Of a DNA stretch of 64,000 nucleotides, positions 48,545 through 60,377 are shown piece by piece. The notes beneath the pieces were generated by a model. It saw only the letters and a program-made list of their open reading frames with translations, was not told where the DNA came from and ran no database searches. Every line of letters begins with the position of its first letter. Position 1 is the first letter of the stretch. This stretch comes from Linnemannia hyalina (lineage: Eukaryota; Mortierellomycota; Mortierellomycetes; Mortierellales; Mortierellaceae), in assembly GCA_019671135.1 (NCBI GenBank), contig JAHRHY010000007.1:124001-188000 (forward strand). Reading direction: 5' to 3'. The position numbers and the translations under genes were made by a program.

Positions 48545-49217
48545 ATTGGACTGGGATCGTTGGTTGAGGCGGGCAAGGCTGCCGGTGCGGATATGGCGGT
48601 AGAGGCTGGTCTGATCCAAACATCAACTGTTCAAGTCAAAGCTGGTGTGGCAGAGCGGGCTGATGTGGCCAACGCTGTGGTCGCTTGTCTGAGAGGCCCT
48701 GCTCGCCAAGCCTGCAAGGTCAAGAGACGGTGTCAGGACGTCTTTGGAAGGTACGTAGAGCGAGTGACTGCAGGGAGGTTCCTCCCACTGAACCGTCGGT
48801 TCTTGGACTTATCTGTCATTATCTGTCCCAGCATCCCTCTCAAGGACTTGATCAGTATGGGTGGCACTAATCAGAAATAGGACGATGACGATCACAAACC
48901 GGACCAACAGGAAGCCTTTATCGAATAATTTGTGCGTTATCTGTACTCAGGCAAGGCCCCTGTCACTTCTTATTCTGGCGCTTCGACGGCTTCTTCTGGC
49001 AAGACACCAAGGGCTTCTGTGGTGGGACACAGCGTCATGGAGTTCATTACGCGCCTCAAGCAGATGAAAATCCTAGAGCCGCGTGACCAGCCACTGATGA
49101 AGGAGGATCCCGATTACACTTGTCAGATCAGTTGCCACCGAGCTTGCAACCGAACTGAAAAAAAAATTATCATCATGGAACTTACGAGCTTCAGGAACAG
49201 GTAACAAACAAACTCGA
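48545..49217 (+). pseudogene. Fanzor-like protein, N-terminal relic
   Basis: Fragments align with the N-terminal half of the Fanzor gene at 52135. The frame with KAGVAERADVANAVVACLRG matches NIDRVLTDRPDLQLEVINCI. The block FVRYLYSGKAPVT...EFITRLKQMKIL matches FLAYLYSSNLPD...FINILVGLQLF. LVRSVATELATELKK followed by HHGTYELQEQ matches LVRSVAGQLSVELKK followed by KNGTHLLYDQ. A GTAACA donor follows GAACAG at the same relative place as the first intron of the intact-length copy. Stop codons and frameshifts interrupt it, and the C-terminal nuclease half is absent. A short basic tail-like frame follows at 49230-49483. Confidence 0.65.
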
Positions 49218-50503: not shown

Positions 50504-50523
50504 CAGGACAATGGACGCCATAA
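50504..50523 (+). repeat. Left terminal inverted repeat
   Basis: A 20-nt terminal sequence matching the reverse complement of 55111-55130 with two mismatches. It defines the proposed 5' end of the XPG-Fanzor unit. Confidence 0.6.
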
Positions 50524-50696
50524 TTCTCTTATTGGCTGAAGCTACACGTGAAATATTTCCTAATATGGGTCATACAAGACTTCGTGTACTTGCTTCGGTG
50601 ACGTGAGAAATGCGCCCACTGTCCCATAAACAGCTCGCAAAGTGCGCGTACACAACAACGACTCTCTCTCCTTTCTTCAACACATGTGCAACCGCC

Positions 50697-52075
50697 ATGG
50701 GTCTATCTTTTTGGTACCCATTCATACGACGCAAGGGCTACAACCCTGCTCAATTGTACCAGTCGATCGTCGCCAAAGTCGCTCCCAACAGACGTCGCAG
50801 ACTCGATGTCCTCGGAACATGCTACCGTGTCATTCGCAACAGTTACTCCAACAATCCTCCAGATGTCGCGCACCGTAAGCTCGAGAAGGAAGTGAGCCGG
50901 TATGGGTCTTCTCTGGATATGTCACTCTATATCGACGGCTATCAAGCAGTGGAAAAGAGTCACACGGCCGCCGAGCGAGAAGGAGTACGGGACAGAGCAA
51001 TAGAACGCACCACCACAGCCCTGGACACACTCGAGTCCCGTCTGGACAACGGTCTCCGCATTAGAAAACGCCACTTTGTTGACGTTCGGTCGGGACTGAC
51101 GTCGTCTTTTTACTGGTCTCGGGAAAGTCGCTTGGGATTTGCACAGTACATGCAGAACGCGGGCTGGACTGTCAAAGTTGCCGACACTGAAGCGGACTTG
51201 GCCATTGCGATCGATGCGGAGCCAGACGATATTGTCATTTCTAGTGACTCGGATATGATGGCGTACGCCTCCATCCAAACTCTATGGCGTCCCGTATCCG
51301 GAGGTCTCATCCTCGCTTACACCGTTCCAGATCTTTTAAAAGCTCTTGGTGTCACCCGTTCCCAGTTGACTGCTCTGGCAGTTGTGAGTCGCAACGACTA
51401 TAACAGGAACATTCACTCCCTCGGCCCGGCGACTAATTTTTCTATTATCAAGTCCATTGACCGTACAGGTAATGATCAAATGGGGAAATTTTATCCCTTG
51501 ATATTGATTGCTTTTTCATATGAAATTCTGACAGTGCTCGATATCTTGCATTACTTAATAGACCCGAAGGACATCGTGTTGAGTTATCTATCTAACAGCA
51601 GGGTTGTCTCAAAAAACACCAACAATCAGGACTTCGCCTTCTCGACCAGAGTCTTTGTGGATCTCCGACAAACCAGACTTGAAATCGACGGATCCCGGCC
51701 CGGTTCTCAGATCCTGTTCCAGCAACTACAGGACCGATTTCAGGATTTCTGCACGCGATATGACCAATATAAACAGAGTCAAACGCGGGGAGTTCAGCCC
51801 AAGTAACTATTTACTGTTGGGCCAATCGAGATCAGGCTATATACGTGAACTGTATCTCATCATGTTTGTATTTTTTTAAAAAAATTGATAGGTCCTCCGA
51901 CGATACTATCGCACGATTGCGAGTTCCGGGCTCTTTTAATCGGTATCGGACTATCGAATCCCCAGCACCGGTTTCCAAGGACTCTGAATCCTTTCCTCAG
52001 AGGCCACCCACTGCTAGTTTGGAGCCTACTACTTCGACTTCTTCGGATCCGCAAGATCATAGCCATCCACATTAA
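50697..52075 (+). CDS. XPG/FEN1-like PIN-fold nuclease on the mobile unit
   Basis: Start ATG at 50697 in a strong context (GCCATGGGT). MG at the N-terminus is expected for this family, in which Gly2 lies in the active site. Likely exons are 50697-51468, 51535-51802 and 51892-52075 (about 407 aa). If the last intron is not removed, the protein ends at 51806. Expected acidic residues are present: D37 (RRLDVLGTC), D80 (SLYIDGYQ), E165 and D167 (ADTEADLA), D184 and D186 (ISSDSDMM) and D234 (SRNDYNRN) in a helix-two-turn-helix-like LGVTRSQLTALAVVSRNDYN. The protein differs strongly from EXO1 or FEN1 and shares its whole central part with the relic at 59830-60377. Flap or structure-specific nuclease activity is inferred only. 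No break is seen. Confidence 0.75.
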
Positions 52076-52134
52076 CCAGAACACGGATACCTCGACATCG
52101 TCAACGATTTTCCTTCAAGGAGCGACGAGGGAAC

Positions 52135-55024
52135 GTGGCTCATGACCCCCCACCCAAGGCCAAGCAATTGGTTTGGAAACCGCCCAAGAAGGCTCCCGAG
52201 TCCCCCGACGACACTTCCACCAGCAGCACCAAGGACAGCAAAAAGAAGGATGCAAAGACTAAGAAGACTCGAGAAAAGCCGTCATCTAATGAAGGATCGA
52301 ACTCGTACGGGGAGAAGGGCAAGCAAAGTCTCGTGAGGTCTCTCGGCTGGCACCACCCCATATCATCGCTGGAGGTCGGTACTTTGAAGACCAACATCGA
52401 TAGAGTCTTAACGGATCGGCCTGATCTACAGCTTGAGGTGATCAACTGTATCAGCGAGGGTTCAGAGCTTGCAGTGGATATCAAGAGAAAAGCTCAGGGC
52501 CTCATTGGTGGGTTTCTGGAGAAGTTGCGGAATCGTATGAAGGCAGCGGAGGAGTTTAAGCGACAGGAACTGAGGAAATCAGGCAAGACCATGTCGGAGT
52601 CGGAGCGGCTGGAGGCACGGCAGGATGCGGTGACGATGGACGAGCGAGATACTCTGGATTATCTGTGTGAGAGGGTTGAGCCCAAAGTCAACAAGTGTGG
52701 TGACGACGACGTCGACGACAGTCAAGAGGATTCAGACGACCTGGATACAGAAGGGAAGGGTAACAAATACTTCCAATTCCTTCTGTCTTTCTTGGCCTAC
52801 TTGTACTCAAGTAACCTTCCAGACAAGAACTCGAAAATCGGAAAAGTCGTCAACACCTTCATCAACATCCTGGTAGGGCTTCAACTCTTCGACATCTGTA
52901 GAAATCGAAACGAGCTCAACGAAAGAATGCCGTTCACGGCGAGCTATCTGGTGCGGTCCGTCGCTGGACAGCTCTCGGTGGAACTGAAGAAGATGTATAA
53001 AAATGGCACCCACCTTTTGTATGATCAGGTAAGGATACAAGGGCTATTAACAAAATGGGCTGAAGTTCATTGCTGCAAAATATATAGCTCATGCTTCTTA
53101 ACTTTTCGCTATAGGTCAAGACCTTAAAGGATAAGGGACGACTAGAGGACCATATCGATATCCGGATTCAGGAAAACATCTCGGCCGCGGAAAACTACCT
53201 TGCCTTCAACGAGCTCATACCGAACAGCTGGCGACTCGCTCCCATCACCTCCTCGCAGCAACCGTTTGTGACATTCTCGGAGCGAGAGCTGGCTCTTTTC
53301 TTTTGGAAGCGACCTTTGTTGAAACAGAGACTGGTCTAGCTGGCCCTCTCGGACGAAGATAGTACCACCCTCCCGTCTACTAAGGATCTCGAGGACTGGA
53401 TCGGAGGACGAGAGCCTGGGGTTATCGTCAAGAAGTTCATCTCCGACACTGATCCAGTTGGGCTGTCAAACCGTCAAAAGCGCAAGACTGGTCATCGCGG
53501 GGCCATCAAGCTGCTCTCCTTGAGTCAGATTCGGGATCATTTGGAGTTGGTTGAAGAGACAAAGCCAAAGGACTATCACCATAGCGGCTACATCCCTCAA
53601 GGATCGATACGGACGGACGGTTTCCTGGTCCAGGTTATGGCCTTCAAGTTGCGTGAACGACAGGACGCTCGATTCAAAAGACTGGCCGAGGAGGATATAC
53701 CCTCACGAATCACTACAACCGTTGCAGGGGTTAACGGTTTCCTTCAAGAAATTCGGAATGTGATCAAGAGCGAGCAGGACATCAAAGAACTTTGGCCTGG
53801 AAAGAACGTGGACAGGATGGAGATTCTAACCTTGGATGGGGGCCAAGCGTGTGTGGTTGGCGCGTTCGCACATCTACCCAATGGCTTGGGTGGCAAGGAG
53901 AAGGCTGAGGAGGAGTCCAGCATGGACGGAATCATCACCACCAACCAAGAATCGACCAGCCTCGCCAGCCAAGGGTTAGCGTCCGTGGATGCAGTGCCCG
54001 CGTCAGCCTCCACCATCACCTCTGCGCAGCCTCCAGTAACGGATTCGCTCGTGACCATTCGAGACCTGCCTACTATAACTTGGCGGTGAAGCAGAAGGCC
54101 GCATATCAGCCAACATTTCGCTTCAGAAGGTGGCTCGAGAACGAGAAGATGGCTACACCACAAGGCGACGAGGAGAAGTCGATTACTTACATCGAAACCC
54201 ATCTGCCACCTCTTTGAGGACAAGATGCGAGCGTTATTGAGTATGTGACAGAGCTGGAGCAGGTCGAGCAACGGCTGAAAAAGTTCTATACTGGAGACGA
54301 CCATCGGTATCAAAGACGTCGTTGGGATATGGCACGGGCCCGACAAGCAGAGTATCAAACGATCGCGGAGAGACTGCTTGGGATTGTTGGTGGTAGTCTA
54401 GGTCGGCGTGTGGAAGATAACAAGGACACCGACCCTATCCTAATTGGCGTTGGTCTTGGACAGTTCGCAAGCAAGTCTAGGCTCTCGTCCCTACACTCGA
54501 CCTTCCTATCGTACTTCATTCAGAAGGTAGGCTTGTTTTTATCGATACCTTTGATACAAGGCACTGCAAGTGAATGTCATTGAATGAAAAAAAAAAAACT
54601 AACATGGTTATTTATTCGCGATTTTCAGGCACGCTCGTTGGGCTATGTGGTTGTTGGCCTGAACGAGTTTTATACCTCCAAGAAGTGTCCGAGGTGCACT
54701 CACTTTGTCGCACAGGTGACCTTACGGACCTTGTACTGCTTCCACTGCCAGATATACCACCACAAAGATGTCATGGCAGCCGAAAACATGTCCAAGATCG
54801 CTCTAAGACACCTGGTGAGGCAGGAGAGACCCGATTACCTCCAGCCTATCAACGCAGATGGATCGTACCCTTGGAAGGCTAGGTCGGGCGAGGGATCCAG
54901 TACAAGTTCGAGCAGTATGGCCACCGGCAGCACCCCCACCGATCGAGTCCCAGGACGTCGCAAGAGGGCCATTACCGCTTCCAGTCAGGATCAGGGCAGG
55001 AAAGGCAAATCGGCCCGAGCTTAG
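52135..55024 (+). pseudogene. Fanzor (eukaryotic TnpB homologue), disrupted copy
   Basis: Exons about 52135-53028, 53115-54526 and 54629-55024, introns GT-AG. Order: a basic Ser/Lys-rich head (the first ATG is uncertain; 52135 is a GTG), a long helical N-terminal region, a TnpB-like core with GSIRTDGFLVQV, RuvC-I MEILTLDGGQ (Asp codon at about 53835), LIGVGLGQFA, then GLNEFYTSKKCPRC (Glu at about 54665), a four-Cys zinc ribbon (CPRC...CFHC) and RuvC-III HHKDVMAAENM (Asp at about 54767). Fanzors are RNA-guided DNA endonucleases. This copy is broken by TAG at 53337-53339, TGA at 54215-54217 and a frameshift between about 54040 and 54075. Both stops could come from single C-to-T changes. The C-terminal tail is basic and low-complexity. 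Confidence 0.8.
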
Positions 55025-55130
55025 ACTAGTTTTTTACGCGTGTGCGAAACCACGCATTAGTGCAGGATTGTGGGACTGGGTTCTACGATGGCGTTACTTC
55101 GGTGACGTCATTTTGGCGCCCATTGTCCTG
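55025..55130 (+). promoter_or_regulatory. 3' end of the Fanzor unit, candidate guide-RNA (omega-RNA) region
   Basis: In IS605-type and Fanzor systems the guide RNA scaffold is usually encoded at the 3' end of the nuclease gene, next to the element end. Here the 106 nt after the stop contain the inverted motifs gcaggattgtggg and gcgcccattgtcctgc around ggtgacgtca, able to pair. Assignment is by analogy and position only. Confidence 0.3.
55111..55130 (-). repeat. Right terminal inverted repeat
   Basis: Inverted partner of 50504-50523 (18 of 20 identical). It marks the proposed 3' end of the unit. Confidence 0.6.
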
Positions 55131-59829: not shown

Positions 59830-60377
59830 TCTTTGGATGCCGCTAACAAGCTCGTATTGAGACGCATCAAGCAGCTTGGTGGCCGTGAGGACTTGGTCTT
59901 GTATTTGACGGCAATCCGGCAAAAGAAAAGCAGGAAACACATCAACTATGAGTGAACGCCCGCGAGAAGGCTCTAAAGGATACAAATAAGAAGGTCGATG
60001 AGTTTGCCGAGGGAATGGAGAATGGCCTTAGGATTTGAAAGCAACACTACATCGACATACACATGAACCTTTCGAGGCATTTGAATGGGACCCGAAGACT
60101 CGCGAGTCTTTGATCGCCCATTTCGAAAAGGAAAACTGGAGCGTGGTTCGATCCCCAACGGAGGCGGATGTCCAAATTGCTGCGGATTGCAAGGAATGTG
60201 ACATCGGGAGTTCTGGCGATTCAAATTTGGCTATCCATCCATGATCTGGTGCTTGGTATCCGGCGACCGATTTCTCGAGTAAAAGATGGAAGACGTCATG
60301 GCAACCTTGAGAGTGATTAGTAGGGCTATAACTGAAATATCTATGGCCTATGATGCGCTACTTGCGTTTAATACTTG
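59830..60377 (+). pseudogene. Decayed XPG-like nuclease of the mobile-unit family
   Basis: Homologous to residues about 65-240 of the XPG-like gene at 50697. ANKLVLRRIKQLGGREDLVL, then after a frameshift DGNPAKEKQETHQ, a stop, and REKALKDTNKKVDEFAEGME with NGLRI matches IERTTTALDTLESRLDNGLRI. HYIDIHMNL matches HFVDVRSGL. In another frame, FEKENWSVVRSPTEADVQIA with GDSNLAIHP matches the XPG-I region TEADLAIAI...SDSDMMAY. VMATLRVISRAITEISMAYD matches LLKALGVTRSQLTALAVVSR. At least three frameshifts and three stops are present. Confidence 0.65.

What the first reader, a model, noticed from the sequence alone, without database searches (positions are those of the whole stretch)
50504..55130. A TIR-bounded unit that pairs an XPG/FEN1-like nuclease with a Fanzor and no visible transposase
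Seen: matching inverted 20-mers (18/20) at 50504 and 55130, and inside them only two genes on one strand, a full XPG-type nuclease and a Fanzor. Known: Fanzors are RNA-guided nucleases found as passengers in several eukaryotic transposon classes. I know of no described element that couples one to an XPG/FEN1-fold enzyme. Inference: the pair could be a two-nuclease mobile or selfish system in which the structure-specific nuclease processes ends or flaps made by Fanzor cutting, with a transposase supplied in trans. Relics of both proteins nearby show both families have spread in this genome.
Basis: partly seen in the sequence, partly recalled or inferred. Interest (0 to 1): 0.9.

Follow-up and report, generated by a model that had tools for sequence, protein, structure and literature searches.

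The report
Fused Fanzor–FEN1 nuclease in fungal transposons
In a soil fungus, apparently Linnemannia hyalina, jumping genes of apparently two kinds carry versions of one gene that is likely spliced into a single protein joining a predicted RNA-guided DNA cutter (Fanzor) to a predicted FEN1-like DNA-end trimmer, which would help the element copy itself back after a cut; the copy in this window has no recognisable transposase and a broken Fanzor part.

Summary
The TIRs, the XPG-like frame and the Fanzor are real, but they read better as one gene than two. The XPG "stop" lies inside a phase-2 intron; removing it joins XPG in frame to a Fanzor frame that often lacks a start codon of its own. Such an intron was found at 11 of 12 loci from six families. 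Of 33 Mortierellaceae relatives, 18 hold both halves in one annotated protein; one is predicted to fold as EXO1/FEN1 followed by Fanzor. In this genome 63 of 97 Fanzor hits have an XPG hit upstream on the same strand (0.64 expected).

Longer relatives with the same kind of ends carry a divergent MULE-like transposase, with 8-9-bp target duplications in three copies. A second group carries the gene beside a piggyBac-like transposase. The window copy is a decayed, transposase-less derivative: XPG part open, Fanzor part broken, no target duplication.

Proposed function (inferred): Fanzor cuts the empty site; the fused FEN/EXO domain resects the break so that the element is copied back. Engineered Cas12a–T5-exonuclease fusions resemble this; nine literature searches showed me no natural one. 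No transcript or activity data; 34 of 97 Fanzor hits have no XPG hit.

The parts
50504..50520 (+). left terminal inverted repeat (core 17-mer)
   Evidence: 97% match over 65 bp at C6 and 98% over 51 bp at C13
50697..51468 (+). exon 1: XPG/FEN1-like nuclease core, open
51535..51802 (+). exon 2: C-terminal part of the XPG region, open
51803..51891 (+). predicted phase-2 junction intron; the apparent XPG stop codon starts at its second base
51892..53028 (+). predicted exon 3: linker and N-terminal part of Fanzor; one frame break in this copy
53115..54526 (+). predicted exon 4: central Fanzor part with RuvC-I; two in-frame stops and one frame break in this copy
54629..55024 (+). predicted exon 5: TNB zinc finger and end of RuvC; open
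   Evidence: PF07282 1.4e-10
55072..55129 (+). right-end sequence that folds into a strong hairpin as RNA; guide-RNA end or palindromic TIR, undecided
   Evidence: the 111-nt stretch 55020-55130 folds at z -4.07; no covariation by RNAalifold
55114..55130 (-). right terminal inverted repeat (core 17-mer)

Best explanation
This unit is a transposase-less, partly decayed copy of a transposon family whose XPG/FEN1-like and Fanzor reading frames are likely spliced into one protein, predicted to make RNA-guided cuts and to trim the cut ends so that the cell would copy the element back in. Shown from sequence: the TIRs, the open XPG part, the broken Fanzor part, the recurring XPG-then-Fanzor order, a frame-keeping phase-2 intron at the junction in 11 of 12 loci, and relatives with MULE-like or piggyBac-like transposase sequence in the same unit. 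Predicted: splicing into one protein and the two folds. Inferred: that a MULE-type transposase moves the window's family; that the Fanzor half, with a guide RNA from the right end, cuts the site that lacks the element; and that the FEN/EXO1-like half then removes flaps or resects 5' ends, pushing repair towards homologous copying and so keeping or spreading the element.
Against: No transcripts, no activity, no guide RNA shown. Annotated fusions can be prediction artefacts: P0001 and P0002 also swallow part of a piggyBac transposase, P0030 and P0032 are joined to unrelated sequence. L051 lacks a good junction donor. 34 of 97 Fanzor hits have no XPG hit. One catalytic acid of the FEN1 set (recalled numbering E158) is not acidic in families B, C, D and G. 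The window copy has no target duplication. Family B ends show no TTAA. The MULE matches are below Pfam cut-offs.
Confidence: 0.55

Rival explanations
1. Two separate neighbouring genes: XPG and Fanzor are made as two proteins and kept side by side as a cassette; annotated fusions are gene-prediction artefacts.
For: The XPG frame closes with its own stop. Annotators do merge neighbours (P0001, P0002, P0030, P0032). Family B has a Met 33 codons after the junction.
Against: Phase-2 frame-keeping junction intron at 11 of 12 loci; no in-frame Met for 57-218 codons in six of seven loci although the sequence there is conserved; conserved motif across the junction.
Confidence: 0.15
2. One fused protein, but the XPG part does something else: it trims the guide RNA, resolves the R-loop, or opens the transposon's hairpin-forming ends rather than resecting the cut.
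For: The same fold class includes RNA exonucleases (XRN1, XRN2 and Rat1 rows), and the unit's ends fold into hairpins.
Confidence: 0.2
3. The XPG-like domain is itself a new kind of transposase that moves the unit.
For: The window unit holds no known transposase and its family has moved.
Against: Relatives with the same kind of ends carry MULE-like transposase pieces, target duplications of 8-9 bp fit such an enzyme, and piggyBac-like units carry a separate DDE transposase.
Confidence: 0.03
4. A passenger without function for the element: the fused gene is only hitch-hiking and decaying.
For: The window, C44 and C47 copies are all broken; some close copies show little constraint (C4 against C17 dN/dS 1.77 on very few changes).
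Against: Catalytic acids and domain order are kept across six families, amino-acid change is far below near-saturated synonymous change between lineages, fused relatives occur in eight genera, and family D has ten copies identical in the XPG part with no decay seen in five of them.
Confidence: 0.07

Closest known systems
[quoted passage not shown] passages)
   Same: A Fanzor in a TIR unit with MuDR/MULE-like ends, 9-bp duplications and no transposase of its own.
   Different: No XPG/FEN1 partner or fusion is mentioned in the passages seen; here some relatives also carry the transposase.
Fanzor1 proteins with extra domains: PpFz1 with a RuvC insertion that binds cyclophilin (PMC11423790; passages)
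   Same: A fungal Fanzor with an added domain; its structure is among the matches of P0026.
   Different: The added part is an insertion without nuclease role; here it is an N-terminal nuclease fold.
FEN1/EXO1/XPG (Rad2) family of structure-specific 5' nucleases
   Different: Carried by transposons, about 15-17% identical to EXO1/FEN1, joined to a Fanzor.
Engineered FnCas12a–T5 exonuclease and enIscB–T5 exonuclease fusions (PMC11471210; passages)
   Same: An RNA-guided nuclease joined to a 5' exonuclease of the FEN fold class (T5 D15 appears; that D15 is T5 exonuclease is recalled).
   Different: Man-made editing tools; this one appears natural and is carried by transposons.
TnpB in IS200/IS605 acting as a retention and gene-drive nuclease (PMC11870625 abstract; PMC10432273 passages)
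   Same: An RNA-guided nuclease cutting the site without the element is the mechanism proposed here.
   Different: Bacterial, no attached exonuclease; the role is only inferred for this protein.

Membership tests
Fanzor | TNB zinc finger of the Cas12f/TnpB type | tested here: met
   window exon 5: PF07282 1.4e-10, above cut-off; 10 of 27 members of alignment A3 match
Fanzor | D-X(125-275)-[TS][TS]XX-C4-X-RD motif (Bao and Jurka) | tested here: met
   8 of 33 database relatives have it whole, spacing 167-252; the other 25 did not match, most of them partial proteins. The window copy has KD instead of RD and is broken
Fanzor | Fanzor fold | tested here: met
Fanzor | guide RNA and RNA-guided cutting | not testable with these tools
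   right-end hairpin seen but no covariation
XPG/FEN1/EXO1 nucleases | fold | tested here: met
XPG/FEN1/EXO1 nucleases | catalytic acidic residues | tested here: inconclusive
   D80, D167, D184, D186, D234 (window numbering) invariant in six families; one further acid is Q in B, C, D and G; the N-terminal one was not in that alignment; numbering against FEN1 partly recalled
XPG/FEN1/EXO1 nucleases | Pfam XPG models above cut-off | tested here: not met
   window 15.7 bits against 24.9; L050 19.8
MULE (Mutator-like) transposons | TIRs with 8-10-bp target duplications | tested here: met
   9 bp at C13, 8 bp at C22, 8-9 bp at the C1 unit; 7 bp at a short C1 copy; none at the window, C8 left end not found
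MULE (Mutator-like) transposons | MULE transposase domain | tested here: inconclusive
   L050 PF10551 25.1 bits against 27.6, C6 14.5; SWIM 16.8 and 19.3 against 19.6; absent from the window copy
piggyBac transposons (second carrier group) | DDE_Tnp_1_7 transposase | tested here: met
   family B PF13843 2.8e-44
piggyBac transposons (second carrier group) | TTAA target duplication (recalled) | tested here: not met
   8 of 8 family B copies read end TATCCC...GGGATA without TTAA; hence 'piggyBac-like' only

The most novel reading that the evidence does not exclude
Fungal transposons evolved a natural cut-and-resect gene-drive enzyme: a single Fanzor–FEN/EXO1 fusion that finds the empty allele by guide RNA, cuts it and resects the break so that repair copies the element in, a module carried by both MULE-like and piggyBac-like elements; keeping the junction intron would make the free FEN-like nuclease from the same message.
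Probability: 0.35. Interest if true: 0.93.

Novelty: new variant of a known kind. Interest (0 to 1): 0.82.

Why it matters
The biological role of Fanzor cutting is called unknown in PMC10432273 (passage). A conserved fusion to a flap/5'-exonuclease fold would say what is meant to happen after the cut, and makes the retention or gene-drive idea testable with proteins from culturable soil fungi. It also looks like a natural counterpart of engineered Cas12a–exonuclease editors (PMC11471210 passages), with fused relatives annotated in eight genera as starting points for tools. The same gene in two transposon groups points to a portable module rather than a single capture.

Tried and rejected
Two independent genes: my starting view; less likely because of the junction intron, missing start codons and conserved junction.

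XPG as transposase: rejected because relatives carry MULE-like pieces.

Guide-RNA search: RNAalifold on 10 right ends gave 5 pairs in a conserved stretch and no pair changed on both sides. Single-sequence folds of four right ends had z -4.07, -6.08, -3.36 and -6.71, and some paired positions differ on both sides between groups, but those pairs were chosen by the fold and the TIR is palindromic, so I claim nothing.

Plasmid collection: no match, as expected for a fungus. First XPG tree: one row (A_C4) was read out of frame and became a long branch; corrected and rerun. In one search the L050 row was read out of frame and is not used. 'PB' and 'MULE' labels of database proteins in the trees rest on similarity; only P0001 and P0002 show transposase sequence. 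Target duplications of family B: none consistent by eye.

Not done: only 7 of 34 unpaired Fanzor hits were read. The protein searches kept candidates of 0.55-1.75 times the query length and scored under 8,000 each, so separate short XPG predictions and distant relatives may be missed. No viral or metagenome scan was run.

Literature: nine searches. 'Fanzor'+'XPG' 0 papers; 'Fanzor'+'FEN1' 1 paper, seen in the listing only; 'Fanzor'+'Mucoromycota' 0; listings showed me none describing such a fusion. PMC10711439 and PMC12730594 were searched for terms only. Most subscription papers and bioRxiv are not held.
Full report
OBSERVATION. The 17-mers CAGGACAATGGACGCCA (50504-50520, +) and CAGGACAATGGGCGCCA (55114-55130, -) are the only matches at up to two mismatches in the window; 0.03 are expected and none of 100 shuffles had two. 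Between them on the + strand lie an XPG-like frame and a Fanzor. In the window's own genome (51.5 Mb) the 16-mer CAGGACAATGGGCGCC has 121 matches at up to two mismatches against 7 for the reversed control. Of the 100 sites listed there, 29 have an XPG or Fanzor hit within 7 kb inward and 71 do not. So the end sequence belongs to a wider family, with short and fold-back members.

ORGANISM. Contig C6 is 1,824,220 bases long, the same as the longest contig given for protein P0001 of Linnemannia hyalina, a Mortierellaceae fungus. That identity is inferred.

COPIES. The unit has near copies at C44 (98%) and C47 (97%), an 86% copy at C22, and diverged copies (63-77% in longer aligned pieces) at C13, C17, C4, C22, C23, C49 and elsewhere. 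The pairing count used XPG hits (93 and 70, merged to 83 loci) and 97 Fanzor TNB hits: 63 of 97 have an XPG hit upstream on the same strand, 1.1-3.9 kb away, 0.64 expected by chance; 20 of 83 XPG loci had no TNB partner. Two further XPG queries gave largely the same places. Many copies are recent duplicates, so these are not 63 independent events.

UNPAIRED FANZORS. I read 7 of the 34 unpaired hits. Four (L020, L037, L071, L072) are 3' fragments. Three (L031, L073, L074) keep much of the Fanzor body with no XPG found by tblastn; L073 still matches part of the linker. Truncation is likely but not shown.

ONE GENE. In family B the XPG frame ends AAATCCAG|GTAAGA and the Fanzor frame resumes after TTAATTAG|; joining them keeps the frame. 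Of 12 loci from six families (window group A six, E two, B, C, D, G one each), 11 have a frame-keeping phase-2 GT-AG intron at the junction: ten and family D. The exception is L051. In 9 of 12 the XPG stop codon starts one base into that intron, as a phase-2 GTAA or GTGA donor always gives. The first in-frame Met after the junction lies 33 (B), 114 (C), 137 (D), 90 (G), 218 (C44), 88 (C13) and 57 (C4) codons downstream, with no stop before it. The sequence is conserved on both sides: KW..S[RM]F[RK][SR]RTD-like in the piggyBac-like group and relatives, FNRYRTVESP in the linker of the window group. pN/pS of the linker region is 0.38-0.45 in three group A pairs and 0.25-0.69 in six piggyBac-like pairs, with synonymous sites near saturation.

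DATABASE FUSIONS. Three searches returned 33 distinct relatives, all named to genera of Mortierellaceae (genera checked). 18 of 33 hold both an XPG and a Fanzor part in one annotated protein, some only partly. They come from Linnemannia, Dissophora, Entomortierella, Podila, Modicella, Mortierella, Gryganskiella and Actinomortierella. These are annotations, not transcripts, and annotators do merge neighbours: P0001 and P0002 include part of a piggyBac transposase, and P0030 and P0032 unrelated sequence.

TRANSPOSASES. L050 and the C6 unit carry MULE-like pieces on the opposite strand upstream of XPG, below Pfam cut-offs. A query from the C6 pieces found ten loci at 1e-12 or better; comparing coordinates by eye, at 8 of these 10 the transposase diverges from an XPG or Fanzor hit, some of them weak. 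At C23:978k nothing is near, and at C23:2957k the Fanzor hit is on the same strand. The C1 unit 601623-609574 has both TIRs and the duplication GACATTGG(G), and spans MULE, XPG and Fanzor hits. Other duplications: ATTTGCATG (C13), AGGCATCC (C22), TATATTT (short C1 copy); none at the window. Family B is 7.37 kb with a DDE_Tnp_1_7 transposase (2.8e-44). Six other continuous copies share both ends, one more lies in three pieces and one lacks the first 0.5 kb. Its ends are TATCCC...GGGATA without TTAA in 8 of 8 copies read, two of which share flanks. Pieces of that transposase also lie upstream of families D and G.

THE WINDOW COPY. XPG part open, 348 codons; Fanzor part with two in-frame stops and two frame breaks; the C44 and C47 copies are broken too.

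HISTORY. Trees of 17 XPG and 13 Fanzor sequences both separate the piggyBac-like from the MULE-like carriers with 100/100 support. This fits one old fusion carried by two transposon groups. XPG dN between group A lineages is 0.31-0.36 with synonymous sites near saturation; among near-identical copies dN/dS runs from 0.16 to 1.77 on few changes.

MECHANISM (inferred). SpuFz1 leaves 5' overhangs; for TnpB, a break at the sister copy lets the element copy itself by homologous recombination (PMC10432273 passages); TnpB acts as a gene drive of insertion sequences in plasmids (PMC11870625 abstract). A fused FEN/EXO1 domain would resect such a break and favour copying over end joining. T5 exonuclease joined to FnCas12a raises editing 2-3 fold (PMC11471210 passages). 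Nothing of this was tested here for the fungal protein.

PRIOR WORK. Bao and Jurka 2013 report Fanzor1 in several transposon superfamilies, including transposase-less MuDR-like units with 9-bp duplications in Mucorales (PMC3627910 passages). No XPG/FEN1 partner appeared in the searches listed under Tried and rejected.

Noticed in passing
48614-49163 and 59898-60278: A Fanzor relic and an XPG relic flank the unit in the window.
   Followed up: partly
G000:C13:857698, C22:229872, C1:601623, C1:79905: TGACGT lies exactly 5 bp outside the left target duplication in 3 of 4 copies that have one (9 bp in the fourth); the same motif sits inside the TIR. A target-site preference is possible.
   Followed up: no
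window 50504-50625: The left end also folds back on itself: the TIR recurs inverted about 100 bp inside.
   Followed up: no
L047 (G000:C1:239129-240602): A near-perfect 1.5-kb palindrome with the same TIRs and no long reading frame.
   Followed up: no
L048 (G000:C8:1329105-1336753): A piggyBac-like XPG-Fanzor element sits inside a small element with CAGGACARTGGGCGCG ends.
   Followed up: partly
L069 (G000:C6:24900-31900) and relatives: Family D: ten copies with 100% identical XPG parts (416 aa), five of those rows showing one stop; the piggyBac-like transposase frame in L069 is cut short. Looks like a very recent burst.
   Followed up: partly
L049 (G000:C4:810900-819900), 1703-2111: A stretch shared at 70-87% identity with over 20 other places, some near contig ends by MULE hits; nature unknown.
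   Followed up: no
L002 (G000:C44:131971-139547): The 98% copy lies right beside remains of another, diverged XPG-Fanzor unit.
   Followed up: no
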